A stretch of 64,000 nucleotides of DNA from Halorhabdus utahensis DSM 12940. GTDB lineage: Archaea > Halobacteriota > Halobacteria > Halobacteriales > Haloarculaceae. Shown one piece after another: positions 12,060 to 46,649 of this stretch. Numbering within the stretch: position 1 is the stretch's first letter; every line of letters starts with the position of its first letter. The position numbers and the translations under genes were made by a program. The stretch spans positions 1,240,001 through 1,304,000 of the forward strand of contig NC_013158.1 in the NCBI RefSeq assembly GCF_000023945.1, in the 5' to 3' direction. Under the pieces are notes generated by a model that saw only the letters and a program-made list of their open reading frames with translations, had not been told where the DNA came from and did not search any database.

Positions 12060-12694
12060 CGCGCGTGAAGGTCTGTGGGCACACCCGCGAGGCGGACGTG
12101 CGGGCGAGCGTCGCCGCCGGCGCGGACGCCGTCGGCGTGATCAGCGGCGTTCCAGTCGAAACGCCCCGGGAAGTCGCCCCTGAGCGCGCCGCCGACCTGC
12201 TCGACGCCGTGCCGCCGCTCGTCTCAGGTGTCCTCGTGACGATGCCCGAGACAGTCGAGGAGGCCCGGGAACTCGTCGCGGAAACCCAGCCGGACGCCGT
12301 CCAGGTACACGGAACGCTCGATCCCGAGGAAGTCGAAGCACTCACAGCGGAAATTTCCCAGCCGATCCTGGTCGCACTCGACCACGACGCCGAACTAGAC
12401 GCCTACGCCGACGCGGCCGACGGACTCGTCGTGGACTCGCTGGACGAAGCCGGCGGCGGCGGGACTGGTCAAACCCACGACTGGGACCGAACGGCAGAAA
12501 TCGTCGAACGCCTCGACGTCCCGATCCTGCTGGCCGGCGGACTCACGCCCGAGAACGTCGCTGAGGCCGTCGAGACCGTCCGGCCCTTCGGTGTCGATAC
12601 CGCCAGCGGTGTCGAGCGCGACGGTGGGGTCAAGGATCACGACGCCGTCGAACAGTTCGTCGATCGGGCTGGGGAACCGCGGGTGGTGGCATGA
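12056..12694 (+). CDS. trpF: Phosphoribosylanthranilate isomerase
   Basis: This 212-aa TIM-barrel enzyme performs the Amadori isomerisation of phosphoribosylanthranilate. The first strand carries the catalytic Cys as VKVCGHTREAD; the usual family form is KICG. Asp in the DGLVVDS strand and the phosphate-binding ILLAGGLTPENV and GVDTASGVE loops are present. Start and stop both overlap neighbours by 4 nt (ATGA), so translation is coupled to trpD and trpE. Confidence 0.95.
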   Translation: MTRVKVCGHTREADVRASVAAGADAVGVISGVPVETPREVAPERAADLLDAVPPLVSGVLVTMPETVEEARELVAETQPDAVQVHGTLDPEEVEALTAEISQPILVALDHDAELDAYADAADGLVVDSLDEAGGGGTGQTHDWDRTAEIVERLDVPILLAGGLTPENVAEAVETVRPFGVDTASGVERDGGVKDHDAVEQFVDRAGEPRVVA

Positions 12695-14337
12695 CGGGCG
12701 AGCCGTCGCTCTCCCACGATGCGTTCGTGGACCTGGCCGACGCCGACGAACCGGGCGTGATCCGGGTCGCCGTTGAACTCGACGCCGACGTGGATCCGCT
12801 CGCGGCCTACGCGGCGGTGACCGGTCGCGAGAGTGACTCCGAGAACGCCAACGCCGACGAGTACGCGTTCCTTCTCGAAAGTGCCGAGAAGGTCGCCTCC
12901 AGCGATCCCAACGGCGCGTTCGCGCCCTCGACTGACGACCGCCACGCCCGGTATTCGTTCGTCGGCTACGATCCCGTCGCGGTCGCGACTGTCGAATCTG
13001 ACGGGACGGATCTGGATATCCTCGACGACCGGTACGCCGACATGCTCGAAACCAACGGCGGGGACGTCCTCGACGACCTGCGGGCCGTCCTGCCCGACGT
13101 CGAGCGCCGCGGCTTTCCGGCCCACGACCGCCAGACGCTCTCTGGCGGGCTCGTCGGGTTTCTGGCCTACGAGGCCGTCTACGACCTCTGGCTCGACGAA
13201 GTCGGCATCGATCGGCCGGACTCGCGGTTCCCGGATGCCCAGTTCGCGCTCGCGACGAAGACGCTGGTGTTCGACCACGCCGAGGACACGGTCTCGCTGG
13301 TGTTCACGCCGGTCGTTCGGCCCGAGGAGGACGCAGGCGCGCGATACGACGAGTTGCTTGCGGCGGTCGAGCGCGTCGAGTCGCTGCTTGCCGACGCGGG
13401 GGATCCCGAGACCGGCGGATTCCACCGGGTGCACGAGGACGCCGGCCCACAGGACGAGTACGAGCAGGCGGTCGAGCGCGCCAAGGAGCACGTCCTCGAC
13501 GGCGACATCTACCAGGGCGTCATCTCCCGGAAGCGAGAACTCTACGGCGATGTCGACCCGCTCGCGCTGTACGACTCGCTGCGCTCGATCAACCCCTCGC
13601 CGTACATGTATCTGCTGGGGTACGACGACCGCACGATCGTCGGCGCGAGCCCGGAGACACTCGTCTCGGTCGGCGGCGACCTGATTACATCGAACCCCAT
13701 CGCAGGGACATCCACGCGCGGAAACAGCCCTGTCGAGGACCGTCGGCTGGCGGGCGAGATGCTCGCCGACGAGAAAGAGCGGGCCGAGCACACGATGCTG
13801 GTCGATCTGGCACGCAACGACGTCCGCCGTGTGGCCGAGCCCGGCAGCGTCCGCGTCGAGGAGTTCATGAACGTCCTGAAGTACAGCCACGTCCAGCACA
13901 TCGAATCGACCGTGACGGGGACGCTCGCCGAGAATAGCGACGGCTTCGACGCGACGCGGGCGGCCTTCCCGGCCGGGACGCTCTCAGGTGCGCCGAAGAT
14001 CCGGGCGATGGAGATCATCGACGACCTCGAAGCGGATCCACGCGGGATCTACGGCGGCGGCGTGGGCTATTTCTCCTGGAACGGCGACGCCGACTTCGCG
14101 ATCGTCATCCGGTCGGCGGCGGTCGAACACGGGATCGATGCCGTCGACGGAAGTGGCGAGAAGCGAACGCAGGACCGGATCACCGTCCAGGCCGGGGCGG
14201 GGATCGTCGCTGATTCCGACCCGGCCAGCGAGTACGAGGAGACCGAACAGAAGATGGGCGGCGTGATCGACGCGCTCGAACGGATCGAGTCGCCGGACGA
14301 GGACGCTGAGACCCCAGTCGAGGAGGTGTCACAATGA
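12691..14337 (+). CDS. trpE: Anthranilate synthase component I
   Basis: This 548-aa subunit makes anthranilate from chorismate with ammonia supplied by TrpG. The C-terminal chorismate-binding domain has SNPIAGTSTRG, EHTMLVDLARND, AGTLSGAPKIRAMEIIDDL and VQAGAGIVADSDP. The N-terminal half resembles the tryptophan feedback-binding region. It is somewhat long for the family; acidic insertions are usual in halophiles. A PabB identity is less likely because it sits between trpF and trpG with ATGA overlaps at both ends. Confidence 0.95.
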   Translation: MTGEPSLSHDAFVDLADADEPGVIRVAVELDADVDPLAAYAAVTGRESDSENANADEYAFLLESAEKVASSDPNGAFAPSTDDRHARYSFVGYDPVAVATVESDGTDLDILDDRYADMLETNGGDVLDDLRAVLPDVERRGFPAHDRQTLSGGLVGFLAYEAVYDLWLDEVGIDRPDSRFPDAQFALATKTLVFDHAEDTVSLVFTPVVRPEEDAGARYDELLAAVERVESLLADAGDPETGGFHRVHEDAGPQDEYEQAVERAKEHVLDGDIYQGVISRKRELYGDVDPLALYDSLRSINPSPYMYLLGYDDRTIVGASPETLVSVGGDLITSNPIAGTSTRGNSPVEDRRLAGEMLADEKERAEHTMLVDLARNDVRRVAEPGSVRVEEFMNVLKYSHVQHIESTVTGTLAENSDGFDATRAAFPAGTLSGAPKIRAMEIIDDLEADPRGIYGGGVGYFSWNGDADFAIVIRSAAVEHGIDAVDGSGEKRTQDRITVQAGAGIVADSDPASEYEETEQKMGGVIDALERIESPDEDAETPVEEVSQ

Positions 14338-14957
14338 GCGAGTCAACCAGCGCGAACGCGACCGAGACACCCACCGACGACCTCGAGGTGCTGTTCGTGG
14401 ATAACTTCGACTCGTTCACGTACAACCTGGTGGAGTACACGTCGGAATACGCCAACACGACTGTCGTGAAGAACACGGCCTCGCTGTCGGACGTTCGGGC
14501 AGCCGACCCGGACGCCATCGTCATCAGCCCGGGGCCGGGCCATCCGAGAAACGACCGCGACGTCGGGGTATCGACCGACGTCCTCCGGGAGATCAGTCCG
14601 GACGTGCCGACGCTGGGCGTCTGTCTGGGCCTCGAAGCGGCGGTCTACGAATACGGCGGCACGGTCGGCCACGCACCCGAGCCGATCCACGGGAAAGCAG
14701 CCTCGATTTCCCACGACGGCAAGGGCGTCTTTGCGGGGCTCGACCAGGGATTCCAGGGTGGGCGGTACCACTCGCTGGTCGCGGGCGATGTCCCCGATTG
14801 CTTCGAGGTGACCGCGACCACGGAAACCGACGACGCCGACCTCGTCATGGGAATCCGCCACCGCGAGCATCCAATCGAAGCCGTCCAGTTCCACCCCGAA
14901 TCGGTGCTGACAGCCGTCGGCCACGACGTGATCCGGAACTTCCTCGTGAGTGTCTAA
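14334..14957 (+). CDS. trpG: Anthranilate synthase component II (glutamine amidotransferase)
   Basis: This 207-aa class I amidotransferase releases ammonia from glutamine for TrpE. After a 17-residue acidic extension it has DNFDSFTYNLVEY, PGPGHP, the nucleophile in TLGVCLGLEA, and the HPESVLT segment containing the catalytic His and Glu. The usual GHQ after the nucleophile Gly is GLE here. The Cys-His-Glu triad remains, so it should be active. It ends the trp operon. trpC, trpA and trpB are not in this window. Confidence 0.94.
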   Translation: MSESTSANATETPTDDLEVLFVDNFDSFTYNLVEYTSEYANTTVVKNTASLSDVRAADPDAIVISPGPGHPRNDRDVGVSTDVLREISPDVPTLGVCLGLEAAVYEYGGTVGHAPEPIHGKAASISHDGKGVFAGLDQGFQGGRYHSLVAGDVPDCFEVTATTETDDADLVMGIRHREHPIEAVQFHPESVLTAVGHDVIRNFLVSV

Positions 14958-15044
14958 CCGGCTGCTGCGGTCGAAGGCTGATCGCGGCGAGGGGCGATGT
15001 CGCCGGACGAGCGGGCGTTCGCGCTCGACACACACCCGCCGCGG

Positions 15045-15052
15045 GTTTAAGT
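15045..15052 (+). promoter_or_regulatory. TATA element of the TlpA-like gene
   Basis: The element gtttaagt lies about 25-30 nt before ATG 15076, so the transcript is probably leaderless. Confidence 0.55.
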
Positions 15053-15075
15053 ATGGATCTCCCCCCGTTCCGGCT

Positions 15076-15732
15076 ATGCAACCACCCTCGCGACGTGCCC
15101 TTCTGGCGGCTGCCGGGACCGCCGCTGTCTCACTCGCCGGGTGTGCGAGCGACGGGACGGACTCGCCGGCAGACGGAGACACCGATCAGACAGCCTCGAC
15201 TACCGAAGCGGATACCGGGGAGCCGACCGCGGATCCCCGGACGACGGCCGCGGAGACCATGGCTGCGAAGACCACGGCCGGTTCGAACGACACCGAGCCG
15301 GTGTGGTACACTGAGCAGCTGACCGACGCCCGAACGGGCGAGAGGTTTTCCATTGCGGAGCTGAACGCCGACGGCCCGGTCCTGCTGGAGACGTTCGCCA
15401 TCTGGTGTTCGAACTGTCAGCGCCAGCAGGTCGAACTGCAAACGTTCCACGAGCAGGCACCCGACGACGTCACAACGGTCGCGCTGAACGTCGACCCCAA
15501 CGAGGACCGGAGTGCAGTCGCCGATCACGCGGAAGAAAACGATTTCGACTGGCGGTACGCAGTCTCGCCACCGGCAATCACGCAATCGCTGATCGGCGAA
15601 TTCGGGCGGTCGATCACCGTCCCGCCGCAGGTGCCAATGGTCCGCATCTGCCCCGGTGGCGAAACAACCCGGTTACCTGACGGGCACAAGTCGACGGATG
15701 ATCTCCTCTCGGCGCTCGACTCCTGCGAATGA
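15076..15732 (+). CDS. TlpA/ResA-like thioredoxin-fold lipoprotein
   Basis: This 218-aa protein is an exported, lipid-anchored thiol-disulfide oxidoreductase. The signal RRALLAAAGTAAVSLAGC has twin Arg and a lipobox Cys23. A Thr/Ala/Asp-rich linker (about 24-75) follows, then a thioredoxin fold with active-site WCSNC (Cys111 and Cys114) and the cis-Pro loop VPPQVPMVRI. TlpA-like proteins reduce extracytoplasmic disulfides, for example during cytochrome c assembly. The next gene, a CcdA-like membrane protein, overlaps its stop (ATGA) and would supply the electrons. Confidence 0.9.
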   Translation: MQPPSRRALLAAAGTAAVSLAGCASDGTDSPADGDTDQTASTTEADTGEPTADPRTTAAETMAAKTTAGSNDTEPVWYTEQLTDARTGERFSIAELNADGPVLLETFAIWCSNCQRQQVELQTFHEQAPDDVTTVALNVDPNEDRSAVADHAEENDFDWRYAVSPPAITQSLIGEFGRSITVPPQVPMVRICPGGETTRLPDGHKSTDDLLSALDSCE

Positions 15733-16496
15733 GTACGCACGCCGCCTTGCTCGAAGTGTTTCTCATCGGCCTCGGGACCCCGCTGACTGCCGCCTGCGCC
15801 CTACCGCTGTACCCCGGCTTTCTGGCCTATCTGGCCGACCAGAGCGCTCGCGGTGAGGAGGCCGGCTGGACGGTACCAGTCTGGCTGCTCGGCGTGCTCG
15901 TCCTCGCCGGGGCCGTCTCGTTCATGGGGCTTGCGGGCCTGCTGTTCTCGTTCGTGCTCGAAATCTCGCTGACAGCGGTCGTCGAAGTCGCCTCGCCAAT
16001 TGCTTTCGTGTTCGTGCTGGCAATTTCGATGGCCCTCATCGCCGACGCGGAGGTTTTCGGTCGGATCCCGGCGGTCGAACCCCCACAGACCCAGTATCCG
16101 AGTGCGACCGCCTTCGGCTATGGCTTTCTGTTCGGCGCGATCGTCCTGCCCTGTAACCCCGGATTCATCGCGCTGTTTTTCGCCCGCGTGCCGATCCTCT
16201 TCGATTCGGCACTGGCGTCACTGCTTGGCTTTCTCTCGTTCGGCCTCGGTCTGGGCGCACCGTTGCTGGCCCTGGCGGTGGTGTCGGAAAGTCTCGGTCA
16301 GCGGGCCACCCGCTGGCTTGCCCGTCACCGGACGGCGATCAACCGCGTTGCGGGCACGATCATGCTCCTCGTGTCGATCTACTACCTGCTGGTCGTCTTC
16401 GACGTCCTCGCGATGGTCGGGATCGAGGGTGCCGACGACCTGATCAGTGCGGGCTACGATGTCATCTTTGGCCCCCTCGGCGACCTCCGCCCCTGA
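15729..16496 (+). CDS. ccdA: CcdA-like cytochrome c biogenesis / thiol-reductant transporter
   Basis: This 255-aa membrane protein has about six transmembrane segments and two conserved Cys-Pro motifs, TAACALPLYPGF in the first segment and IVLPCNPGFIALFF in the fourth. These are the redox-active cysteines of the DsbD/CcdA core. It carries reducing equivalents from cytosolic thioredoxin across the membrane. It starts inside the stop codon of the TlpA-like lipoprotein gene, its likely electron acceptor. Confidence 0.9.
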   Translation: MSTHAALLEVFLIGLGTPLTAACALPLYPGFLAYLADQSARGEEAGWTVPVWLLGVLVLAGAVSFMGLAGLLFSFVLEISLTAVVEVASPIAFVFVLAISMALIADAEVFGRIPAVEPPQTQYPSATAFGYGFLFGAIVLPCNPGFIALFFARVPILFDSALASLLGFLSFGLGLGAPLLALAVVSESLGQRATRWLARHRTAINRVAGTIMLLVSIYYLLVVFDVLAMVGIEGADDLISAGYDVIFGPLGDLRP

Positions 16497-16638
16497 GTGC
16501 CCGTTGTCTCACCGAAGCCGGCCCTCACAGTGTACATTTGGCAGGCTCCGCTTCGGTTTCCTGGGCGTTCTTTAGTATGGGAGTGTGTGACTTGCCGACA
16601 CCCCAACAATTACTTATTGTCCATTTCAGGTGAGGGGT

Positions 16639-17808
16639 ATGGTTCCGGAGGCAGGCCTCGTCTGGCGGGGGTTTCACCACGCCTGGCGATACAACCACCG
16701 GCTGAATCGACTCGCGAGTTACCTCGCGTGGACCGGCGGGGACTGGGAGTGCGTCCACGCCGCGGCGTCGGGCACGGGTCCGGACACGGCCCAGTTCTGT
16801 GACCTCTACACGCTGATCGAAGACCCGGACGTGGCCTTTCAGTCGGTGACTGAACCGTTCGAGGTCACCGGTGACGAGAACGTCTCACACACCGTCTCCC
16901 GGACACTGACGATCGACCTGGAGAGCGAACTCCAGGGCCGGGACACGATCGAAGTGGTGCTGAACGGCTTCGACATCGCCGCCGCAAGTGACGCCGACAA
17001 GCTCCAGAAACTCCACCTGTCGGTCGGCGAGCCGACCGAGTCGGCCGACGGGACGTCTCTCGACGTTCCTGTCGAGGTCACCTTTCAGGGTGACTGTGGG
17101 ACGCCCGAATGTCGCGAGGACGGGGTCGACTACGGGGTCGACGTGCGCTACCTCGTGGTGGCGGGTGACGACTCGACCGTTCGCTCGGGGTCGACGGTCA
17201 GCGCTGGCTCGGACTACACCTGGGATCGGTCACAGGAACCCGATCACAAGGCCGACGGCCTCGCCCGGGCGTCGATCACCGATCCGGACCGCTGGACGGG
17301 CGATAGCGTCGAGAACGCGCTCGGCTTTACCGAACTGCAGGTCGATCTGACGAAAACCGGGGACCCGGCGCTCATCGCGGCCGTTGGCGAGCTGGCCGAC
17401 CACGCCGAGGGGATGCACTTTCTGGAACTCGACGCGTCGATCGAATCGATCACGGCGGACAACGGAACCCTCGACGCGGCGTTCCTGCTGTTCTACAAGA
17501 ACTGGGAGCGCGGGATGAAACAGCTCGTCCCGCCGGATTTCCTCCAGACGATCACCGACTTCATCCCCGATGACACCGAGTCCGCGATCCGCAACGACCC
17601 CGACCTCTCCTGGACGGACGTGATCGACGCCTCGATCCTCGCTCACCGCAGTGCGGGCCGGGCCGACATCGACGCCACCGCCCGCCTGCTGCAGTTCGAC
17701 GATCCGGAACGGTTCCACCACAACGCCGTCCCCGGCGATGTCGACTGGGAGGGCGAGAACGCCGATCCGAACAGCGACGACGCCGTCCAGCGCACCCTCA
17801 TCGAATGA
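16639..17808 (+). CDS. Unknown protein, first gene of the repeat-phosphoesterase-CHAT operon
   Basis: This is a 389-aa protein that I do not recognise. ATG 16639 is chosen because a purine-rich ribosome-binding sequence (aggtgagggg) lies just upstream; GTG 16630 is an alternative. There is no signal peptide or membrane segment. The N-terminus is aromatic, basic and helical (VWRGFHHAWRYNHRLNRL). Residues about 60-200 look rich in beta strands and contain a Cys pair (GDCGTPEC). Residues about 230-389 are mixed and acidic, with a conserved-looking FLLFYKNWERGMKQLVPPDF stretch. It precedes the 44-aa ORF by 17 nt and leads a four-gene operon, so it probably acts with the large helical-repeat phosphoesterase. 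Confidence 0.8.
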   Translation: MVPEAGLVWRGFHHAWRYNHRLNRLASYLAWTGGDWECVHAAASGTGPDTAQFCDLYTLIEDPDVAFQSVTEPFEVTGDENVSHTVSRTLTIDLESELQGRDTIEVVLNGFDIAAASDADKLQKLHLSVGEPTESADGTSLDVPVEVTFQGDCGTPECREDGVDYGVDVRYLVVAGDDSTVRSGSTVSAGSDYTWDRSQEPDHKADGLARASITDPDRWTGDSVENALGFTELQVDLTKTGDPALIAAVGELADHAEGMHFLELDASIESITADNGTLDAAFLLFYKNWERGMKQLVPPDFLQTITDFIPDDTESAIRNDPDLSWTDVIDASILAHRSAGRADIDATARLLQFDDPERFHHNAVPGDVDWEGENADPNSDDAVQRTLIE

Positions 17809-17825
17809 TCGACACACGCCACATC

Positions 17826-17960
17826 ATGATCCAGACCCACTCCCGCGCTTGTTCGATCGCATCGGCTGAACACCACTCGATCGTATCGGCCGACCAGTAC
17901 TCGGTCGCGTCGACTGAACAGCACCGTGACAGGGCTTCCGTCGGAGGTGCGTCGCGATGA
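17826..17960 (+). CDS. 44-aa microprotein with three 8-residue tandem repeats
   Basis: This small frame opens at ATG 17826, 17 nt after the previous stop, and ends in an ATGA overlap with the start of the 1195-aa gene. Its centre (17853-17924) consists of three exactly 24-bp imperfect tandem repeats encoding SIASAEHH, SIVSADQY and SVASTEQH. The repeats differ mostly at positions that conserve or resemble the amino acid, and the frame is kept. The coupling overlap and in-frame repeats argue for translation. The alternative is a noncoding repeat that happens to stay open. Function unknown; it may only couple translation. Confidence 0.5.
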   Translation: MIQTHSRACSIASAEHHSIVSADQYSVASTEQHRDRASVGGASR

Positions 17961-20900
17961 CTCACGACTTCGACGTCGCCGCCGATCTGCCGGGGGTGAG
18001 CCGGGAGACTGTCGCCAGGAAACTCCGCCGGACCGAACTCAGCGAGGACCACTACTTCGACGCGGTCGAAGTGAGCATGAAGCGCGACCGGGCGGAGGGG
18101 CGGGAGGTACTCGAAGGCCTCATGCGGACCAAATCGGCTTCCCGGGTGGGCCAGCGACTCCTCAAGGACGCCTGTGCCTGCGGCGACGACCAGATCCGCC
18201 GGGACGTTGTCGCAGCGTTCCGTGAGACCCGTCGGGAGGACGCTTTAGTGACCAGTGCGGGTCTGCTCACGGTCGAGGACGCGACGCAGGTGTTCAAGGA
18301 CTTCTTCGAGGCCGGTGGCGACACCCGTCCGATCGCCGAGTGGCTGTCGGCCATCGGCCCGGGCTATCGACGCGAGAAGCGCCGTGGGAACGTCGACCTC
18401 GAATACGACGGCTGGTTCAGCGACGCCTGGGACACGATCAAGGACGCGGGCAAGACCGTCGCCGAAGCGGTCAAGACGGTCGTCGACTCGGTCGTCGAGG
18501 CCGGCAAATCCTTCGCCGAGGTCGTCAGCGACGTCGTCGACTACGCCCAGCGTCGAGTCAACTCGATCGTCGAGTCCCTGCTCGACGCCGGCAAGACGGT
18601 TGCGGACATCATCTCGGGACTCGCCCAGGAGGCCTACGCGACGATCAAGAAGATCGTCAAGGCGATCATCTCGGCCGGGAAGTCACTGGGTGCCATCCTC
18701 CGGGAGGCGATCGACATCGGCGAGTCATTCCTCCGGAGCGTCGCTCGGGCGCTCCGACAGGCCGGGACCGCGATCTCGGACCTCGTGGTCGCGGCAGGGA
18801 AAGCGTCGGTCGACGTGCTCCGGGTCGTCTCCCGAGCGCTCGTCGCCATGGTGACCTACGCTGAGTCCCGGGCCAACTACATCATCAATACCATCAAAGA
18901 CGAACTCCCGGCCCTCGCCGAGGACATCATCGACATCCTCGGCGATTTCGTCGACGAGGCGTTCGAACTCGCGAAAAACGCCGTCGAAGACGGGCTCTCA
19001 GCCGTGCTCGATCAGGTTCGGAAGGCCGCAAACAGCATCCGCTCGACAGCGAGGTCCGTCCTGCAGGGCTTGCTCGAAGGGGGTCTCGCGCTGGGGGACC
19101 TCATCGCCCACCTCCACCAGGAGGCCAGCCAGTTCTTCGAAGACGCCGTCTCGCTGCTCGGCGAGATCGTCGATCGTGCTGAGGACCTCTTCGCGGCGGC
19201 ACTCGATCTGGGCGAGTGGGCGCTCGGCGAGGTCATGGAGGCCCTGGCGGCGGCCGGCGAGTCGGTCGCCGACCTGATCGCGTGGGCCAGGGAAGCCGGG
19301 GCCGCCGCGCTCGATGCCGTCGTCGACACCCTCGACGCCATCGGTGAACTCACCAGCGAGGCGCTCGCCGAACTCGGTCAGGCCGTCGTCGAACTCGGTC
19401 GGGGACTCACCAGGCTGGTCGAGCGGGTCGCCGACTGGGGCGAACTGGCGGCCCGAGCGGCCTTCGACGGCATCCTCGACGCCGGCGGGGCGGTCCTCGA
19501 CGTGCTGGACGCGCTGTGGGATCGGGCCCGGAACTTCCTCGAGGCGGGCATCGACACCCTCCTGCGAGTCGGCGCACGCATCCGGGACGTGCTCGCGGCG
19601 GGGCTGGACATGGGACTGGACATCCTCGGCGAGTTCGTCCGCCACCTCCGGGACCTCGGGCGGTCGATCTGGTACATCCTCGACTGGGTGGTAGACACGG
19701 TCGGCCGCGTCGGGGACGCACTCGAAGTCGTCTTCGAGACGCTGATGGACGTCGGTGTCGCGCTGGGCGAACTCGTCGCCTGGGCGGCCCGGCGGACTGC
19801 CGACATCATGCGGACGGGCTTCAGCGCGCTGCTCGCGATCGGGGTCGGCCTCGGCGAGATCCTCGTCGCGCTGTTGACCGATCCGGGCAACGTCTTCTCG
19901 ACAGCCATCGACGCGTTGCGCGACATCGGAACCAGCCTCGAGGAGTTCTTCACCGCAATCACCGACGCCGGCCAGCAGGTGCTGGGCCGGCTCTACCGTG
20001 CACTGGAGTCGATCGGCGTCGCGCTGGCCGACATGCTCGGCGCGCTGGTGTCACTCGGCGCGGAGACGTTCAAACAGTTGCTCGACGGCCTGCTGAAGAT
20101 CGGCGTCACGGCCTTCGAGGTCGTGCTGTGGGCCGCCGACCGAGCCTTCGACGTCTTCGGCTGGGTGATGGAGGTCGTCGAGGCCGCACTCGACTCGCTG
20201 CTGGACCTGATCGAGTGGGCGGCCGGCCTCGGCGGCCCCGTGCTCGAACAACTGGCCGACTGGTTCGCGAAGGGGGTCGAAAACGCCTTCGACTTCGTGC
20301 GTGACAAGGTGATCGTCCCGCTGGTCTCGGCAGCCAAACTCGGGCTGGTCGTCGCACTGGCATCGGTGAGTCTCCCCTTCCTTGTGGTCGCCTACGTCGT
20401 GCTGGGGTCGCTCGTCAATCCCGACCAGACGACCTACAAACACTGGCCGGACGATCTGCGGACGTTCGAGTGCGAACAGCGCGTCGAGATCCGCGAACTC
20501 TCGCCGCCGAGCGACGACCGCGGGATCGTCGTCTTCAGCGACCTCCACATGGAGGACCAGGACGACATCGACGCCGGTCTGGGCCATTTCCACGAGAACG
20601 CCGACCTCGTCGAGTCCGTGCTGACCGAGTACGCCAGCGAGGAGTCGGCGGGCTACGACTGGACGGTCGTGTTCAACGGCGACAGCGAGGAGTTCTGGGT
20701 CGACAACGACCTCACGTCGAGCGAACCCGCCGACAAGGTCGACGAGATCGTCGCCACCCACCCCACGGTGCACGAGACCGTCTCCGAGGACTTCTACAAG
20801 TTCGAGTCACCACGACGGTTCGTCAAGGTCCGCGGGAACCACGACGCGAGTTACAACGATCCCCACGTCGTCAACGCCTACGAGGACCACGGCTTCCCGG

Positions 20901-21544
20901 ATCTGGAAGTCTACGACTACGTCACCACGCAGTTCGACGGCGAGGACGTGCTCATCACTCACGGCCACCAGTTCGATCCCTGGAACTGCGACCCGAACAA
21001 CGACTTCGGGAAGTTCTCCAGCAACTTCGTCGCCGAGTCGATCGACGCGATCAGCAACACCCTCGAAGACGTCTTCGGCGAGGACGCCAGCCTGGAGGGC
21101 GAGACCATCGAGGTGTTCGACCTCGAGATTCCGGTCCACGCTATCGCGCCGTACTACGATCCCGGCGAGTGGCGACCGATGGTGGAGAACAGCGTCAAAT
21201 CCCCCTCGATCGAGGACGGTGCGATGTTCGAGGAAAGCGCCGTCGTCGAGACGATCCGCGAACTGGATGCGAGCATGATCATCGGTCATACCCACGGCCC
21301 GAAGGTCATGCAGGACGGGACCGATTCCAGCCGGTTCTACGTCAACAGCGGGACCGCAGGCTGGTGGGAGGACTGCGTCTGGACGGTCGAGATCACCGAA
21401 GCGAACGTGACGCTCAACGGCTTCACGCCGGACGGGAGTGGCGGTCACCAGCGCGAGTACGTCATCGCGCTGGACGATCCGACCGACGACGGGTCCTTCG
21501 GTGCGGGCGACCCCGACCGGCTGGTGTCGAATGGGACGTTCTGA
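17957..21544 (+). CDS. Giant 29-residue helical-repeat protein with C-terminal metallophosphoesterase
   Basis: This is a 1195-aa protein. Residues 1-150 are a charged helical head. Residues about 164-750 are amphipathic Ala/Leu/Asp-rich helices built from a 29-residue repeat. The repeat begins with a small residue plus Gly (AGKSLGAIL, IGVALADML, VGVALGELV). Units start at 182, 211, 240 and 269; at 375, 404, 433 and 462; at 509, 538 and 567; and at 599, 628, 657, 686 and 715. A hydrophobic segment (about 793-818) is probably transmembrane. Residues 855-1150 are a calcineurin-like phosphoesterase with all metal motifs: SDLH (861-864), NGDS (907-910), GNHD (960-963), THGH (1001-1004) and GHTH (1110-1113). 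It overlaps both neighbouring genes. The domain combination is unfamiliar to me and its substrate is unknown. Confidence 0.85.
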   Translation: MTHDFDVAADLPGVSRETVARKLRRTELSEDHYFDAVEVSMKRDRAEGREVLEGLMRTKSASRVGQRLLKDACACGDDQIRRDVVAAFRETRREDALVTSAGLLTVEDATQVFKDFFEAGGDTRPIAEWLSAIGPGYRREKRRGNVDLEYDGWFSDAWDTIKDAGKTVAEAVKTVVDSVVEAGKSFAEVVSDVVDYAQRRVNSIVESLLDAGKTVADIISGLAQEAYATIKKIVKAIISAGKSLGAILREAIDIGESFLRSVARALRQAGTAISDLVVAAGKASVDVLRVVSRALVAMVTYAESRANYIINTIKDELPALAEDIIDILGDFVDEAFELAKNAVEDGLSAVLDQVRKAANSIRSTARSVLQGLLEGGLALGDLIAHLHQEASQFFEDAVSLLGEIVDRAEDLFAAALDLGEWALGEVMEALAAAGESVADLIAWAREAGAAALDAVVDTLDAIGELTSEALAELGQAVVELGRGLTRLVERVADWGELAARAAFDGILDAGGAVLDVLDALWDRARNFLEAGIDTLLRVGARIRDVLAAGLDMGLDILGEFVRHLRDLGRSIWYILDWVVDTVGRVGDALEVVFETLMDVGVALGELVAWAARRTADIMRTGFSALLAIGVGLGEILVALLTDPGNVFSTAIDALRDIGTSLEEFFTAITDAGQQVLGRLYRALESIGVALADMLGALVSLGAETFKQLLDGLLKIGVTAFEVVLWAADRAFDVFGWVMEVVEAALDSLLDLIEWAAGLGGPVLEQLADWFAKGVENAFDFVRDKVIVPLVSAAKLGLVVALASVSLPFLVVAYVVLGSLVNPDQTTYKHWPDDLRTFECEQRVEIRELSPPSDDRGIVVFSDLHMEDQDDIDAGLGHFHENADLVESVLTEYASEESAGYDWTVVFNGDSEEFWVDNDLTSSEPADKVDEIVATHPTVHETVSEDFYKFESPRRFVKVRGNHDASYNDPHVVNAYEDHGFPDLEVYDYVTTQFDGEDVLITHGHQFDPWNCDPNNDFGKFSSNFVAESIDAISNTLEDVFGEDASLEGETIEVFDLEIPVHAIAPYYDPGEWRPMVENSVKSPSIEDGAMFEESAVVETIRELDASMIIGHTHGPKVMQDGTDSSRFYVNSGTAGWWEDCVWTVEITEANVTLNGFTPDGSGGHQREYVIALDDPTDDGSFGAGDPDRLVSNGTF

Positions 21545-22124
21545 ATCGGTCCTGCTGCTGGGGTTTTACCATCCCCGGTACGTCGACCCGCTCCGGGCGT
21601 GGGCCGACCGGCTGCGGGCGGCCGGGTGTTCGGTCACGGAGGGCTATCCGGATACCTGGTACCCAGAGGACGTCCTCGACGCCCTCACAGCCCCGCGCGA
21701 CCTGGTGGTCTACTTCGGCCACGGCGAGCCCGGTGCCTGGTCCGGGTTGGGTCGGATCGACGCCGCTGCCGTCGCCAGTGTCGGGGGGGAGCCACACCGG
21801 CTCGTCCTGAGTGCCTGCTGTAGCACGTTCGAAGGGAAGCGTGCGGGGAGCGAGGGGAGTCAGAAGAATTCCGATGGCGCTGCCGAGGGCGGCGACGGCG
21901 AACGAGCGCAGTCGGTCGGTGCGGCGTTTCTGGAGGGCGGTCTCGCCGAGGCCGTCGTCGGGTACGACGATCGCATCCGCCACGACGATAACCGCGACGT
22001 GCTCGATCACCTCCTGGCTGGCTACCGGACGGCGATCCGTGACGGCGACGACGGGGCAAGCGCGGTCCTGGATCGAGCGCGTCGGGATCCCGCACTTCGC
22101 GTCGCCGGGCAACGCGAGCGGTGA
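21531..22124 (+). CDS. CHAT/caspase-like putative protease
   Basis: This is a 197-aa protein from ATG 21531, overlapping the end of the large phosphoesterase gene by 14 nt. It has the caspase-fold signature: a hydrophobic strand then His in VVYFGHGEPG (His64), a second strand then Cys in LVLSACCSTF (Cys96/97), and a later GAAFLEGGLAEAVVGY segment. This matches CHAT domains and other clan CD peptidases. An insertion rich in Ser, Gly and Asp (about 104-125) may be a flexible or cleavage loop. Substrate unknown; its neighbours in the operon are obvious candidates. Proteolysis is inferred, not shown. Confidence 0.75.
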   Translation: MGRSESVLLLGFYHPRYVDPLRAWADRLRAAGCSVTEGYPDTWYPEDVLDALTAPRDLVVYFGHGEPGAWSGLGRIDAAAVASVGGEPHRLVLSACCSTFEGKRAGSEGSQKNSDGAAEGGDGERAQSVGAAFLEGGLAEAVVGYDDRIRHDDNRDVLDHLLAGYRTAIRDGDDGASAVLDRARRDPALRVAGQRER

Positions 22125-22516
22125 CCTCCCCAGATACGTCGACCGGGACTGTCAATCCTCGTGGGGGGGTTGCCACGAACTCCAGTCCGGCGACGTAGCG
22201 AAGACCCCCTGCTTTCGAGTCCGTCCTGCCACAGGGGAAGGGGGTTGGGATGCTTTCGTTCACTTTCACTCCGGTCTACGAACGCTTATGTATCCCCATC
22301 TCGTTGGCTGTGAGCGTGTGAGCCAGCCCTTTGAGCCTCGGGCTTTGACACGAAACATACGGATTATGACAGAGGTTCGGATCGCAAACAATCGCGCAAG
22401 CCAAAGCGTTATGAGGCATCCAGGCTAACAGGACTTCCACCATATATGATACAAACGAGAGCGAAAACAAGGGGACGGAGTACCGGATCGACATCCGCGT
22501 CGTGGGGGGCCGAACA
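22125..22516. other. Intergenic region upstream of nrdJ
   Basis: This 392-nt stretch has no accepted gene. A G-rich tract (gtgggggggttg) and a later gaccccct could pair as the 3' structure of the preceding operon. The AT-rich catatatgata (about 22441-22452) is the probable TATA element of nrdJ, giving a leader of about 45 nt. I looked for a cobalamin riboswitch core, since the enzyme uses B12, and did not find one. Confidence 0.5.
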
Positions 22517-25500
22517 GTGAGCGACGCCGAACTCGCCGTCGACGAGGTCACGCTGCCGATCAAGCGTATCGAGGGCGACACCCTCGCCGACCGGCTGACC
22601 GACAACGCCTACCACAACATTCTGCCGGCACGGTACCTTCGGAAAGACGCCGACGGCGAACTCGTCGAGCAACAGGAGGATCTCTTCGAACGCGTCGGGA
22701 AGAACATCGCGCTGGCCGAAGCCGTCTACGAAGCGCGAAATCAGGACGTCGAGATCACCGTCACGCCCGACCAGCTCAAACCCGACCATCCCCGTCGGGA
22801 CGAGCTCGCCGAGGAAGTCTTCGGGAAAGGGACATCCATTGGCGACGACGCCGAGACGACCCTCTCGGTCTATAACGTCAACAAGTTCGCCTACGAGACT
22901 GTCGTCCCCGAACTCCCCGCGGACGTCCGCGAGCACGTCGAGGAGACCGCCACGGAGTTCCAGGACCTGATGGAGAATCTCTCCTTTATGCCGAACTCGC
23001 CGACGCTGATGAACGCCGGCGACGAACTTCAGCAGCTCTCTGCGTGTTTCGTCGACAGTCCCGAGGACGACATCGATGACATTCATCAAACAGCGAAAGA
23101 AGCCGCACAGGTTTTCCAGAGCGGCGGCGGAATGGGGTACGCCTTCTGGCGATTACGGCCCTATGGAGATGCTGTCGGATCGACGGGAGGAATCGCTTCC
23201 GGTCCGATAACGTTCATGCGGACGTTCGATCAGATGTGCGAGACGATCGCCCAGGGCGGTGCCCGGCGGGGTGCCCAGATGGGCGTCATGCGGGTCTCCC
23301 ATCCGGACGTCATCCAGTTCATCCACGCCAAGAACAAGGACGTCTCCCTGGCGCGGACCTTGCGGCTGAACGATCCCGACGATTTCACCCACACGTCCTT
23401 CTCGGACGCCTTGGAGGAAGCCCGCGAATTGATCGACGACGACGGGCGGGTTCCCGAACACCTCCGCAACGCCGTCGAGGGCCACCTCTCGAACTTCAAC
23501 ATCTCGGTGGGCATCACCGACGAGTTCATGGACGCCCTCCAGAACGACGAGGAGTTCACGTTCACCAATCCCCGGACGGGCGATCCCCACATCGTCACCG
23601 CCGAAACCAAGGAACTGTACGACATGTTCGGCCTCGGCGAGTACGTCGAGGTCGGCGAGGAACTGTCGATTCCAGCCAGCGAGCTCTGGGACGACATCGT
23701 CGAGGGCGCTCACGAGAACGGCGAACCCGGCGTGATCTATCTCGAACGCGCCAACAAGGAACATTCCTTCGACGTGGAAGAAAATTCAGACCATAGAATC
23801 CTTGCAACAAACCCGTGTGGTGAACAACCCTTGGAGGAGTACGAGGCCTGCAACCTCGGCCACATCAACCTCTCGACGCTGGCCGCCGAGGGGGCCCCGG
23901 ACTGGCGGGTCTGGTCCGAACGCCACGCCGACGACTATGACGACTTCGAGGCGGCGGTCGAGGCGTATCTCGACGAAGCCATCGACGTCGAGGAACTCGA
24001 ATACCGCATCGAGATGGCGACCCGGTTCCTCGAGAACGTCGTCACGATGTCGGACTTCCCGGTCGAGAAGATCGAGGAGAAAGTCCGGGACATGCGCAAG
24101 ATCGGGCTGGGGATCATGGGACTGGCCCAACTGTTCATCCAGCTCGGCGTCAAGTACGGCAGCGACGAGGGCGACGCGATCGCCGGCCACCTCATGCAGA
24201 AGATCAACCACGACTCCAAGTGGGCGAGCCACGAACTCGCCGAGGAGCGGGGCGTCTTCAACGACTGGGAGGACTCCAAATACGCCGACCCGACCGAGTA
24301 CCGCGAGTGGTTCGAACACTACGTCGGCGAGGACGCCGACGACTGGGCCGAGGGCTTCCCGATCCGCAACCACAACACGACGACCATCGCTCCGACCGGC
24401 ACGACCAGCATGGTCGGGAACACGACGGGTGGCTGTGAGCCCGTCTACAACGTCGCCTACTACAAGAACGTCTCCGACGACGTCCAGGGCGACGAGATGC
24501 TCGTGGAGTTCGACGACTACTTCCTCCGCGTGCTGGAGGAGAACGGCATCGACGTCGAGACCGTCAAGGAGGAGGCCCAGGAACAGATGGCGACAAACGA
24601 GTTCGACGGCGTCGAGGGGCTCTCGACGGTGCCCGACGCCATCGGCGAACTGTTCGTCACGACGGGCGACCTCTCGCCCAAGCAGCACGCCTCGATCCAG
24701 TGTACGCTCCAGGACGGCGTGGACAGCGCCATCTCGAAGACGGTCAACGCGCCCAACGACTCCACGATCGAGGACGCCAAAGATGTCTTCGAGTACATCT
24801 ACGAACACGGCGGCAAAGGCGTCACCTATTACCGGGACGGCACCCGGAGCAAGCAGGTGCTGACCACCAGGGCGGAGAACACCGACTTCGCCGACATGGA
24901 CACCGAGGAGGTCATCGCCCAGATCGAGGCCGTCTTCGGCGGGATCGAGGCCTTCCTCGATGACGAGGACGTCAGGGCAGCCCTCGACGGTGAAATCGAA
25001 ACGCTCCTCGGCGAAGCCGACGGCGAATACGCCGACTACGCCAAAAAGCGCCCGCGGCCTGACGTCCTCCATGGCGTGACCCAGCGTATCGACACCGGCT
25101 ACGGGAAGGTCTACGTCAACATCAACGAGGATCCCGAAGCCGAACGGCCCTTCGAGCTGTTCGCCAACATCGGCAACTCCGGCGGCTTCACGGCGTCGTT
25201 CACCGAGGCCCTCGCCAAGACCGTCTCGGCCGCACTCCGGGCCGGCGTCGATCCCAACGAGATCGCCGGCGAACTCCAGGGTATCCGCTCACCGAAGGTC
25301 GCCTGGGACAAGGGCGAACAGATCCAGTCGATCCCGGACGCCATCGGCACGGCGATGCGCCGATACCTCGATGGCGACATCGAGCGGGCCTATCCACAAC
25401 AGCAGACGCTCGAAGAGACCGCCGACGAAGAGGATCCGGAAGCCATGGGCCACTCGACTGACGGCGGCGCGACGACTGCGCCGAGTGAATCGGTTGAGCC

Positions 25501-25636
25501 GACCGAGCCGAGTGGTGACCAGCAGGAACTCATCGAGAACGGCGAGAGTCCCGAATGTCCCGAGTGTGGGTCGATGTCGCTGTATTACTCCGAAGGCTGC
25601 AAGACCTGTGAGTCCTGTGGCTGGTCGGAGTGTTGA
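22517..25636 (+). CDS. nrdJ: Adenosylcobalamin-dependent (class II) ribonucleoside-diphosphate reductase
   Basis: This 1039-aa enzyme makes deoxyribonucleotides using a cobalamin-generated thiyl radical. It shows the family order: MPNSPTLMNAG, SACFVDSPED with a redox Cys, VFQSGGGMGYAFWRLRP, the active-site NPCGEQPLEEYE (Cys434), and NTTTIAPTGTTSMV. A C-terminal zinc-ribbon tail has four CxxC-type cysteines (CPECG...CKTCESCG). GTG 22517 is favoured because a G-rich ribosome-binding stretch precedes it; GTG 22502 is an alternative. No intein is present, though this family often hosts them. Codon usage becomes AT-rich around two conserved motifs (about 23090-23215 and 23770-23835). Confidence 0.95.
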   Translation: MSDAELAVDEVTLPIKRIEGDTLADRLTDNAYHNILPARYLRKDADGELVEQQEDLFERVGKNIALAEAVYEARNQDVEITVTPDQLKPDHPRRDELAEEVFGKGTSIGDDAETTLSVYNVNKFAYETVVPELPADVREHVEETATEFQDLMENLSFMPNSPTLMNAGDELQQLSACFVDSPEDDIDDIHQTAKEAAQVFQSGGGMGYAFWRLRPYGDAVGSTGGIASGPITFMRTFDQMCETIAQGGARRGAQMGVMRVSHPDVIQFIHAKNKDVSLARTLRLNDPDDFTHTSFSDALEEARELIDDDGRVPEHLRNAVEGHLSNFNISVGITDEFMDALQNDEEFTFTNPRTGDPHIVTAETKELYDMFGLGEYVEVGEELSIPASELWDDIVEGAHENGEPGVIYLERANKEHSFDVEENSDHRILATNPCGEQPLEEYEACNLGHINLSTLAAEGAPDWRVWSERHADDYDDFEAAVEAYLDEAIDVEELEYRIEMATRFLENVVTMSDFPVEKIEEKVRDMRKIGLGIMGLAQLFIQLGVKYGSDEGDAIAGHLMQKINHDSKWASHELAEERGVFNDWEDSKYADPTEYREWFEHYVGEDADDWAEGFPIRNHNTTTIAPTGTTSMVGNTTGGCEPVYNVAYYKNVSDDVQGDEMLVEFDDYFLRVLEENGIDVETVKEEAQEQMATNEFDGVEGLSTVPDAIGELFVTTGDLSPKQHASIQCTLQDGVDSAISKTVNAPNDSTIEDAKDVFEYIYEHGGKGVTYYRDGTRSKQVLTTRAENTDFADMDTEEVIAQIEAVFGGIEAFLDDEDVRAALDGEIETLLGEADGEYADYAKKRPRPDVLHGVTQRIDTGYGKVYVNINEDPEAERPFELFANIGNSGGFTASFTEALAKTVSAALRAGVDPNEIAGELQGIRSPKVAWDKGEQIQSIPDAIGTAMRRYLDGDIERAYPQQQTLEETADEEDPEAMGHSTDGGATTAPSESVEPTEPSGDQQELIENGESPECPECGSMSLYYSEGCKTCESCGWSEC

Positions 25637-42856: not shown

Positions 42857-44473
42857 GTGAACGATCGTCCCCCCAGTGACAAGTCGGACGGCAGTGGGAC
42901 TGACCCATCATCATCGTCCGCCAAGGGGCCAGACCCGAATGACGACGGGCCGGACCTCGACTCGGACGGTCCCGAGTCCACAGCCGACCCGAGCGATGGG
43001 GACGACTCGGGTGACTCGATCACCCAGGGGAGCCTCATCCGGCCGCTGATCGGCCTGGCCTGGCCGATCGTCGTCATTCAGCTGTTGCAGGTCACCTACA
43101 ACATCGCCGACACGCTGTGGCTCGGCCGACTCTCGGCGGACGCCGTCGGCGCGATCAGTCTCGCCTTTCCGCTGATCTTCCTGCTGATCGCCGTCGCGGG
43201 CGGCTTTACGACCGCCGGGGCGATCCTCGTCGCCCAGTACACCGGTGCGAAGGGTGAGCGGTCAGCCGGCCACGTGACCGGCCAGACCGTCTCGTTCGTC
43301 GGATTGCTGTCGGTCGTGATCGGGGTCGTCGGGTACTTCTACACCCGCCCAGCGCTCGAACTCCTCCCGAGCGATCCCGAGACGTCGGCGTCGGTCATCC
43401 CGCTGGCGGCTGATTACATGGAGGTCATCTTCATGGGGATTCCGCTGATGTTCGGGTTTTTCATCTTCTCGGCGCTCATGCGAGGGTACGGCGACACGCG
43501 GACCCCGATGTTCGTGATGGTGGTCTCCGTCGGGTTGAACGTCGTCCTCGATCCCTTCTTCATCTTCGGATTTGCCGGCAATCCCCTGTTCGAGTGGGTC
43601 GGCCTCGGCGGCCTGGAAGCGACCCTGGAAGCCGCGACTGGCTTTACCGGCCTCGGTATCGAAGGCGCAGCACTGGCGACGATCCTCTCTCGAGGCGTCG
43701 GCACGGCGATCGGCCTCTGGCTGCTGTTCGGCACGGGCATCGGCCCCGCCGTCACGTTCGAGCATCTGCGGCCCGATTTCCCGGTCATCAGAGATATCAT
43801 TCGATTGGGAACCCCGAGCATGGTCGAGCAATCGACCAGCGCCCTGGCGATGATCACGCTGACGGCCATGATCGTCACGTTCACGCCGCCAGTCGTCGCC
43901 GCCTACGGCCTGGGCAACCGGCTCATCTCGCTGGTCTTCCTGCCGGCGATGGGGCTGGGCCGGGCGATCGACACCATGGTGGGCCAGAATCTGGGAGCCA
44001 ACCGGCCGGACCGGGCGTCCCGGGCGACCTGGCTGGCCGCCGGGACGGGGGCAGGAGTCATGGCGGTCGTGGCCGTCGTCGCCGTCGTGTTCACCGAGCC
44101 GATCGTCGGCGCGTTCATGGGCGACGTGCCCGACGCGGCCGCGACGATCGCAAACGGCGTCGAGTACGTCCGGATCCGCTCGGTCGAGTTCACGTTCATC
44201 GGTGTCACGCAGGTGATCCTCGGGGCGTTCCGGGGAGCCGGCAACACCCGGACGGCGATGGTCATCTCGATCATGACCCTGTGGGTCGGCCGCGTTACCA
44301 GCGTCTACGCCCTCGTGTTCGTCTTCGAGTGGGGCGCGACCGGCGTCTGGGTCGGGATGGCGCTTGGCAACATCGTCGGCGCAGTCCTTGGCGTCGCGTG
44401 GTTCCTCCGGGGGACCTGGAAAGAGCGATACATCGACGAACCGGCCCTCGACGCCGACGAGGCGGTCTCGTAA
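42857..44473 (+). CDS. MATE-family multidrug exporter
   Basis: This is a 538-aa polytopic protein from GTG 42857; GTG 42830 would add nine residues. A 55-residue Asp/Ser/Pro-rich cytosolic N-terminus precedes twelve predicted membrane helices. MATE signatures are visible: PIVVIQLLQVTYNIADTLWL and the GLNVVLDPFFIFGF segment, with the symmetrical second half beginning TPSMVEQSTSALAM. Such proteins export cationic drugs or metabolites with Na+ or H+. It is divergent from cofH, 127 nt away. Confidence 0.92.
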   Translation: MNDRPPSDKSDGSGTDPSSSSAKGPDPNDDGPDLDSDGPESTADPSDGDDSGDSITQGSLIRPLIGLAWPIVVIQLLQVTYNIADTLWLGRLSADAVGAISLAFPLIFLLIAVAGGFTTAGAILVAQYTGAKGERSAGHVTGQTVSFVGLLSVVIGVVGYFYTRPALELLPSDPETSASVIPLAADYMEVIFMGIPLMFGFFIFSALMRGYGDTRTPMFVMVVSVGLNVVLDPFFIFGFAGNPLFEWVGLGGLEATLEAATGFTGLGIEGAALATILSRGVGTAIGLWLLFGTGIGPAVTFEHLRPDFPVIRDIIRLGTPSMVEQSTSALAMITLTAMIVTFTPPVVAAYGLGNRLISLVFLPAMGLGRAIDTMVGQNLGANRPDRASRATWLAAGTGAGVMAVVAVVAVVFTEPIVGAFMGDVPDAAATIANGVEYVRIRSVEFTFIGVTQVILGAFRGAGNTRTAMVISIMTLWVGRVTSVYALVFVFEWGATGVWVGMALGNIVGAVLGVAWFLRGTWKERYIDEPALDADEAVS

Positions 44474-44497
44474 GTCGCGAATTCGGGACAGCGGCGT

Positions 44498-44866
44498 TCA
44501 GGAAAACAGCAACCCGAGGTTGATCCCCGTGATCACCGTGCCGACGAGGGCGAGGAAGATCGGCGGCCCGTAAAACAGCAGGCGATCGTCTTCGAGGCGG
44601 CCGGCCCAGATGCTGATCCCGAGACAGAGATAGAACACGAGTAACTTCATCGCCAGGAAACCGCCGCCGCCGAAGAGATCGATCGAGAGGTTGACGATCG
44701 GGTTCGCCTCGACGTGGATCCGGCTGAAATAGGCGATCGTGATCGTCGTGACGATGTCGCCGACGCCGTAGGTCGCCAGCGCGAGCAACCACACGTTGCG
44801 GAAGGAATCCTCTTCGAAGGGAGAGCCATCCAGGTGGAGCCATTCAGGGCGGGCCGTTGCCATCAT
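44498..44866 (-). CDS. DUF5658-like membrane protein
   Basis: This is a 122-aa protein with three to four membrane helices. The central motif YGVGDIVTTITIAYFSRI followed by HVEANPIVN matches the D-x-x-TT...EANP pattern of the DUF5658 family, whose function is unknown. The N-terminus (MMATARPEWLHLDGS) is cytosolic. It is convergent with the MATE exporter gene. Confidence 0.65.
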   Translation of the reverse strand: MMATARPEWLHLDGSPFEEDSFRNVWLLALATYGVGDIVTTITIAYFSRIHVEANPIVNLSIDLFGGGGFLAMKLLVFYLCLGISIWAGRLEDDRLLFYGPPIFLALVGTVITGINLGLLFS

Positions 44867-44994
44867 TTACTAATTGAACTGACAGCCCTAATCGTTGGCG
44901 ATGCAAGTATCAGTGGCGATATTTAATGAGTTGAGAATGAGTACCCATTGCCAAAATGGTGTGATATACGAATGTTCCCACTGTTTCTGGCTAG

Positions 44995-46059: not shown

Positions 46060-46616
46060 CCGGTTTCACCCTCTGTACGTTCCGGTTCGTCCTCATCCCG
46101 GGCTACAAACAATTCCCATAGCTCAGTCGCTGCCAACAGCAACGCAGGGACAATAATCAGTAACGCGATACCAAGATCCGTGCCGGCGAACGCGACGACG
46201 TACCCCATATACGGAATCGAAAAAGCAACCCGACCGATGACCTGATCCGCCGAGACAAGAGTCGGATCGGGCCCCTCGTTCGCGTCGCCCTTCGTGCGGT
46301 ACAACTCTTGACCATCGCGCTCAACGACCTCCACGATCCGATGTGTCACCGGATTCTCGGATCCACGACGGTACGTGATTATCTCGTTCTCGGACAATCG
46401 GTCGGGAGTGACATCAGCCACGTATACGACCGATCCCGCATCGATCGTCGGCGACATACTGTCGGATTGGACAACGTAACTCTGGTCAGCGCCAACGATC
46501 TGGGGGATCGCGATCGAGACGAACAGAAGGACGACGGCGATGAACAACACCGTTCCGAGAAGTTTGCCAGTCCGCCGCCAGTCGATCGCGCGCACGGCCG
46601 GCAGTGATCGACTCAC
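46056..46616 (-). CDS. sipW: SipW-type signal peptidase I
   Basis: This is a 186-aa ER-type signal peptidase. An N-terminal membrane helix (about 18-40) leads to the catalytic Ser box SDSMSPTIDAGSVV (Ser53). His92 in NPVTHRIVEV replaces the bacterial Lys, as in archaeal, ER and SipW enzymes. RTKGDANEGPDP and the conserved Asp follow, with a second membrane helix near 145-170. It is surrounded by three proteins with the matching signal type, so it probably matures them. Confidence 0.9.
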   Translation of the reverse strand: MSRSLPAVRAIDWRRTGKLLGTVLFIAVVLLFVSIAIPQIVGADQSYVVQSDSMSPTIDAGSVVYVADVTPDRLSENEIITYRRGSENPVTHRIVEVVERDGQELYRTKGDANEGPDPTLVSADQVIGRVAFSIPYMGYVVAFAGTDLGIALLIIVPALLLAATELWELFVARDEDEPERTEGETG

Positions 46617-46649
46617 GACCGATCACCGTCGTGTGCGCTCGCTATCCGG

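What the first reader, a model, noticed from the sequence alone, without database searches (positions are those of the whole stretch)
18440..20210. Strict 29-residue (87-bp) helical repeat array
Small-Gly unit starts fall exactly 29 residues apart in several runs: 182-269, 375-462, 509-567 and 599-715. One 32-residue spacer and irregular gaps separate the runs. Twenty-nine residues is eight helical turns, so the array could form a long membrane-lying or rod-like helix, as in apolipoproteins or tape-measure proteins. Such fixed spacing in a cytoskeleton-free archaeal protein attached to a phosphoesterase is striking.
Basis: seen in the sequence. Interest (0 to 1): 0.75.

Follow-up and report, generated by a model that had tools for sequence, protein, structure and literature searches.

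The report
Giant periodic helix fused to phosphoesterase
A salt-loving archaeon and one close relative carry a protein whose middle 630 residues repeat every 29 residues like an extremely long half-greasy helix, followed by a membrane segment and an enzyme domain; it looks like a molecular rod or ruler, but what it does is untested.

Summary
The 29-residue repeat is real. In the 1195-aa product of window 17957-21544, residues 153-785 show a dominant lag of 29 (BLOSUM autocorrelation z = 13.4; 15 Gly-Gly pairs against 5.4 expected). The hydrophobicity spectrum peaks at 3.626 residues (29/8 = 3.625) with phase broadly kept across 22 consecutive units, in the ortholog too (76% identity, no indel in the array). 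It is a protein-level repeat; the DNA is not tandem.

The simplest reading is one or a few very long, nearly straight amphipathic helices with a hydrophobic half-face, leading into a membrane segment and a metallophosphoesterase domain with its motifs. A C25-like peptidase gene overlaps the 3' end. The three-gene block was found in 2 of 7 genomes of the genus and nowhere else in up to 391 haloarchaeal genomes. It is under purifying selection.

In pattern it resembles phage tape-measure proteins, but homology is not shown: a reversed array matches the same profile families about as well, the tape-measure aromatic pattern is absent, and no tail genes flank it. I favour a membrane-anchored helical rod over a lipid-lying coat; neither was tested. 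AlphaFold models were too poor to use.

The parts
16611..22204 (+). Block shared by the window genome and G005 between trpG and nrdJ; absent at that site in the other 5 genomes of the genus
16639..17808 (+). Gene 1, 389 aa, no known family; low-confidence model with a beta-rich middle (pLDDT 42.8). AT-rich stretch about 27 bp upstream of the ATG (16611-16620), as for a leaderless haloarchaeal promoter (inference)
17957..21544 (+). Gene 2, 1195 aa: N-terminal region, 29-residue helical array, membrane segment, metallophosphoesterase
17957..18412 (+). N-terminal region, residues 1-152, mostly helical in the poor model, fastest-evolving part (59% identity)
18413..20311 (+). The array, residues 153-785: about 22 units of 29 residues, coherent amphipathic period 3.626; conserved prolines at 643 and 761 may break the helix
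20306..20416 (+). Hydrophobic segment, residues 784-820, Kyte-Doolittle 19-window mean up to 2.54: likely membrane anchor
20450..21541 (+). Metallophosphoesterase domain, residues 832-1195; motifs SDLH 861, NGD 907, GNHD 960, HGH 1002, GHTH 1110, all kept in the ortholog
21531..22124 (+). Gene 3, 197 aa, start overlaps the stop of gene 2 by 14 bases; C25-peptidase-like (E 0.0048; ortholog 8.1e-5, 22.5 bits vs cut-off 23), invariant His64-Gly and Cys96-Cys97

Best explanation
Residues 153-785 form a giant amphipathic alpha-helix (about 73 nm to the first conserved proline at 643, up to about 95 nm in all at 1.5 A per residue) with a period of 29 residues per 8 turns, so its hydrophobic half-face runs nearly straight along the helix. 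Several copies bundle by these faces, with Gly and Ala on the flanks allowing close packing, into a rod of fixed length, anchored at its C-terminal end by one membrane segment that leads into a phosphoesterase domain. The rod holds the N-terminal region at a set distance from the membrane; a signal passed along it controls the phosphoesterase, and the co-encoded C25-like peptidase may cut or release it. Shown: the period, phase coherence, domain order, kept motifs, gene overlap, purifying selection. Inferred: helix, bundling, membrane insertion, catalysis, peptidase link, role.
For: Spectral peak at 3.626 with power 89.9; shuffles reach 12.0 at most, phase-randomised 29-mers 50.8 (ortholog 88.8 vs 11.6 and 53.4). 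Power/variance 67.9 vs 12.0 for the next frame elsewhere in the window, of 116 open frames (a higher 24.6 is antisense to the array itself). Hydrophobic arc 180 deg, arc with under 10% charge 160 deg, Gly at +54 and Ala at -54 deg. Four phage tape-measure windows, chosen because they matched, give hydrophobic arcs of 180-220 deg and power 27-55. Archaeal virus HFTV1 has a hexameric helical tape-measure bundle (PMC12494034, one section read); ZorA has a pentameric cytoplasmic rod (PMC11890865, abstract and passages). Array dN/dS 0.26, phosphoesterase 0.14. Membrane segment.
Against: No usable 3D model: whole-protein pLDDT 36.8. A half-hydrophobic helix fits lying on lipid equally well. Pfam Phasin_2 passes its cut-off (42.0 vs 24.9 bits for the array) while the reversed array does not (16.5). 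Conserved prolines at 643 and 761 argue against one unbroken helix. The phase wanders by about 120-140 degrees along the array. Absence of indels in 633 columns is not exceptional: gene 1 and the phosphoesterase have none either. Topology and oligomer state untested.
Confidence: 0.45

Rival explanations
1. Membrane- or inclusion-lying coat helix: the array lies flat with its hydrophobic half-face in the cell membrane or on PHA granules, like phasins, perilipin 4 or apolipoproteins, and brings the phosphoesterase to that surface.
For: Nearly straight hydrophobic half-face; Phasin_2 above Pfam cut-off, reversed control below it; PHA synthase PhaC over cut-off in 7 of 7 genus genomes and PhaE in the 2 of 2 searched; perilipin 4 is a published giant repeat amphipathic helix (PMC5889406, passages).
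Against: The block is in 2 of 7 genomes that all have PhaC, and lies far from phaC (2.21 Mb vs 1.26 Mb). Ortholog Phasin_2 score only equals the cut-off (24.9). Polar face strongly acidic, poor for anionic archaeal lipids (inference; high salt screens charge).
Confidence: 0.3
2. Domesticated viral tape-measure protein: the array descends from a tail tape measure and kept its ruler role, or serves a tail-like device.
For: In tblastn, 38 of the 40 listed rows (92 records in all) are annotated tape measure, best listed E 3e-4; reversed array best listed E about 0.1, 20 of 20 listed rows (58 records) tape measure. Forward local alignment beats reversed for 3 of 4 tape measures and exceeds the highest of 100 class shuffles for the same 3.
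Against: Reversed wins for the fourth (218 vs 180). Reversed array hits PHROG tape-measure profiles at 1.6e-14. Published [FW] patterns: 0 matches in both orthologs. Flanks are trpG and nrdJ, no tail genes between them.
Confidence: 0.12
3. Alpha-solenoid or bundle of 29-residue helical hairpin units.
For: Period in the range of helical repeats; weak match to a designed helical repeat protein (5cwo, E 0.019).
Against: Phase broadly held across 22 units; only three prolines between 150 and 785 (two conserved); phase-randomised units never reach the observed peak in 300 trials.
Confidence: 0.1

Closest known systems
Tape-measure proteins of tailed viruses
   Same: Long half-hydrophobic helices built of 11- and 18-residue steps (29 = 11 + 18); local spectral power of the same order.
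   Different: Four examples peak at 3.638-3.674, none with 29 as top lag; no [FW] 11/18 chain, no tail genes; fused to membrane segment and phosphoesterase.
SF-assemblin rod (algal and protist rootlets)
   Same: Consecutive 29-residue motifs in a helical rod (PMC8435291, passage).
   Different: There four heptads plus a skip residue, eukaryotic. Here the local best angle is about 97-103 deg with a global 3.626 period.
Perilipin 4 giant amphipathic helix
   Same: Very long repeat amphipathic helix without indels between repeats (PMC5889406, passages).
   Different: 11/33-residue period and weak hydrophobic face there; 29 residues, Leu/Val/Ile-rich face and strongly acidic polar face here; units here are far less alike, with one 32-residue spacer.
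ZorA cytoplasmic tail (Zorya)
   Same: Membrane-anchored long helical rod; PADLOC ZorA model E 1.6e-5, best on residues 260-401.
   Different: The best stretch covers positions 388-525 of that 590-position model; ZorB was not searched for.
Phasin_2 family
   Same: Amphipathic helix; residues 160-232 above cut-off.
   Different: About 630 residues against a profile of 100, fused to other domains, unlinked to PHA synthase genes.

Membership tests
Tail tape-measure protein | Lies in a tail gene cluster | tested here: not met
   Flanks trpEG and nrdJ; site empty in 5 of 5 other genus genomes
Tail tape-measure protein | [FW] markers at 11 or 11-11-18 spacing (patterns of PMC3271669; there found in about 5% of tape measures) | tested here: not met
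   0 matches to either pattern in both orthologs; longest 11/18 chain 3, null mean 2.5
Tail tape-measure protein | Sequence homology beyond helical periodicity | tested here: inconclusive
Tail tape-measure protein | Length sets tail length | not testable with these tools
   No tail known
Phasin (Phasin_2) | Score above Pfam cut-off | tested here: met
   36.7 vs 24.9 whole protein; array alone 42.0, reversed 16.5; ortholog 24.9
Phasin (Phasin_2) | Tied to PHA genes | tested here: not met
   PhaC in 7 of 7 genomes, block in 2 of 7, unlinked
Phasin (Phasin_2) | Binds PHA granules | not testable with these tools
   Needs experiment
SF-assemblin | 29-residue motif of four heptads plus skip residue | tested here: inconclusive
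   29 met; lag 7 significant, but local period nearer 3.6 than 3.5
Calcineurin-like metallophosphoesterase | Profile match and metal-binding motifs | tested here: met
   Metallophos_2 31.0 vs 27 for the domain alone; five motifs in both orthologs; motif roles recalled
Peptidase C25 | Profile above cut-off | tested here: not met
   16.6 and 22.5 vs 23 bits
Peptidase C25 | Catalytic His and Cys (assignment recalled) | tested here: met
   His64, Cys96 and Cys97 invariant in 2 of 2
Zorya ZorA | MotA-like core with ZorB partner | tested here: inconclusive
   PADLOC match best on residues 260-401, model 388-525 of 590; the two other genes of the block match no PADLOC model

The most novel reading that the evidence does not exclude
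The block is a proteolytically gated membrane device of archaea: a C25-like peptidase cuts the giant helical protein, freeing a 630-residue amphipathic array to assemble on or break the membrane and unleashing the phosphoesterase, by analogy with caspase-gasdermin pairs in bacterial immunity (recalled; listings only). Overlapping genes, patchy occurrence and neighbour turnover fit; nothing here tests it.
Probability: 0.08. Interest if true: 0.85.

Novelty: new variant of a known kind. Interest (0 to 1): 0.45.

Why it matters
Long amphipathic helices with strict periods are known as viral rulers, lipid coats and sensor tails. A cellular one joined to a membrane segment and a phosphoesterase with its motifs kept, next to a peptidase-like gene, in two archaea only, would add a new use. 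It also gives a clean sequence test case (29/8 = 3.625, close to the natural helix pitch) for how helix period sets straight or coiled bundles.

Tried and rejected
Recent DNA-level duplication of an 87-bp unit: no 87-bp array in Tandem Repeats Finder. Polytopic membrane protein of 29-residue spans: unit Kyte-Doolittle means within the array are at most 1.07, low for membrane spans, and the units are amphipathic. Rep_fac_C, Baculo_PEP_C, ApoLp-III, DUF7217 and similar Pfam matches: taken as helical-composition hits; Baculo_PEP_C and DUF7217 recur in the reversed control, Rep_fac_C and ApoLp-III do not at E <= 0.01. Weak class-wide hits: A2 gave 4 besides the two orthologs in 391 genomes (E 6.3e-6 to 8.2e-4, within the phosphoesterase domain; not examined further); A3 gave 1 (L009, read, no relative seen); A5 gave 4, of which L036 and L037 were read (unrelated genes) and L038 and L039 were not. 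Family hits: L003, L004 and L006 carry separate phosphoesterases without the array, L005 a transducer-like gene on the other strand. Viral contigs: one phosphoesterase relative in a virus without the array (L032); none for A1, A4, A3. Plasmids: no match for P0001, P0005, the phosphoesterase domain or P0006; the array alone gave 10 Rhizobium chemotaxis receptors (best E 2e-3), taken as coil similarity. Solved structures: no match for the array profile at E <= 0.01, none for gene 1 at E <= 5. Fold search of gene 1's model: no match at E <= 0.001; the top of the list is virus capsid proteins, on a model too poor to interpret. Indel-free array as proof of length constraint: dropped, since other parts are indel-free too.

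Full report
What is there. The finding lies in one gene, window 17957-21544 (+), 1195 aa, single copy in its genome. The repeat stretch is residues 153-785, window 18413-20311. Lag 29 dominates all lags from 1 to 120 by four measures and is confined to this stretch; it is as strong in the ortholog P0002 of genome G005. It survives shuffles that keep each position hydrophobic, small or polar and a Gly-only test. The repeat is one of protein pattern: no 87-bp DNA array is found, and adjacent units share 2-10 of 29 residues.

Shape. The hydrophobicity spectrum of residues 153-790 peaks at 3.626 residues per turn, power 89.9, against at most 12.0 in 300 shuffles and 50.8 in 300 sets of phase-randomised 29-mers; the ortholog gives 88.8, 11.6 and 53.4. 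The phase of the 22 units stays between -117 and +1 degrees in P0001 and -131 and +7 in P0002, so it wanders by about 120-140 degrees and returns. The hydrophobic face spans 180 degrees, 120 of them without any charge in P0001; Gly gathers on one flank and Ala on the other. Among 116 open frames of 200 or more codons in the window, power/variance is 67.9 here; the next is antisense to the array (24.6), then 12.0 in the nrdJ frame. Two conserved prolines, 643 and 761, may break the helix. Two AlphaFold jobs with two-sequence alignments gave pLDDT 36.8 and 42.8 and are not used as evidence.

Other parts. Residues 784-820 are strongly hydrophobic. Residues 832-1195 match Metallophos_2 (31.0 bits, cut-off 27, on residues 862-1195), with five motifs kept in both orthologs. 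Gene 3 overlaps gene 2 by 14 bases and resembles peptidase family C25 just below its cut-off. Gene 1 (389 aa) matches no Pfam, NCBIfam, PHROG or PADLOC family at the limits used (for NCBIfam the ortholog P0003 was scanned).

Distribution and evolution. The whole protein was found in 2 of 7 genomes of the genus and strongly in the same 2 of 146 of the family. By parts, strong matches: gene 1 2 of 391, phosphoesterase domain 2 of 391, N-terminal region 2 of 391, array 2 of 341, gene 3 2 of 292 haloarchaeal genomes, samples drawn evenly from the class; weak extra matches are told under Tried and rejected. The first look scored only a few candidates per genome, so distant relatives may be missed. 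Two genome-collection scans found none. In the other 5 genomes trpG and nrdJ are neighbours. Left of the block stand a thioredoxin-like and a DsbD-like gene here (the second below its cut-off) and a subtilase-like gene in G005 (named by eye). dS of the block genes is 0.64-0.90, like trpG (0.82) but unlike trpE (0.18); dN/dS is 0.14-0.35, array 0.26. The genes are therefore kept by selection; their proteins are 59-86% identical by part, trpG 87% and trpE 96%.

What it resembles. PHROG tape-measure families match at E down to 2.1e-15 (8.1e-16 for the array alone), but the reversed array matches three of the same families at 1.6e-14 to 2.2e-13, a class shuffle at 1.9e-5 and a full shuffle not at all: the profiles see amphipathic period and composition. 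tblastn favours the forward array (3e-4 against about 0.1). Local alignment to four tape measures is mixed. Those four peak at 3.638-3.674, so the 29/8 lattice is not simply theirs. The published aromatic patterns (PMC3271669, outline and first part read; PMC5099701, passages) are absent. Phasin_2 passes its cut-off and the reversed control does not, which keeps the lipid-coat rival alive, yet PHA synthase occurs in all 7 genomes and the block in 2. SF-assemblin has 29-residue motifs too, as four heptads plus a skip residue (PMC8435291, passage).

Mechanism. I favour a bundled, membrane-anchored rod of fixed length carrying a phosphoesterase (0.45), over a lipid-lying coat (0.30), a domesticated tape measure (0.12) and a hairpin solenoid (0.10). 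The half-hydrophobic face with small residues on both flanks suits bundling, as in the hexameric HFTV1 tape measure (PMC12494034, one section read) and the pentameric ZorA rod (PMC11890865, abstract and passages). It would suit lipid as well; this is a preference, not a result.

Novelty. Five phrasings of a 29-residue repeat or 3.625 period returned 6 papers (5 listed), of which I read passages of one, on SF-assemblin; no listed title described such an archaeal protein. Searches joining haloarchaea, metallophosphoesterase and caspase-like, or metallophosphoesterase, tape measure and archaea, listed none describing this architecture by title or start of abstract. Only openly licensed papers are held. 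I rate it a new variant of a known kind: long periodic amphipathic helices are known, this period with these partners is not, as far as searched.

Noticed in passing
window 22502-25636: nrdJ is one frame of 1044 aa here and its open frame is equally long (1073 codons) in G005, while in the other 5 genus genomes its match lies in much longer open frames (1445-2761 codons) and is split, as inteins would do.
   Followed up: partly
window 17853-17924: Three imperfect tandem 24-bp repeats between genes 1 and 2, not seen in the ortholog's intergenic stretch.
   Followed up: partly
window 14950-16496: Thioredoxin-like and DsbD-like genes left of the block; in G005 a subtilase-like gene stands there instead (L044 10118-11560).
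   Followed up: partly
window 12691-14337: trpE is far less diverged at silent sites between the two genomes (dS 0.18) than trpG next to it (0.82), as if recently recombined.
   Followed up: no
window 44000-48100: Low-GC stretch (54-58%) with two genes that look like secreted proteins with SipW/camelysin-like starts (by eye).
   Followed up: no
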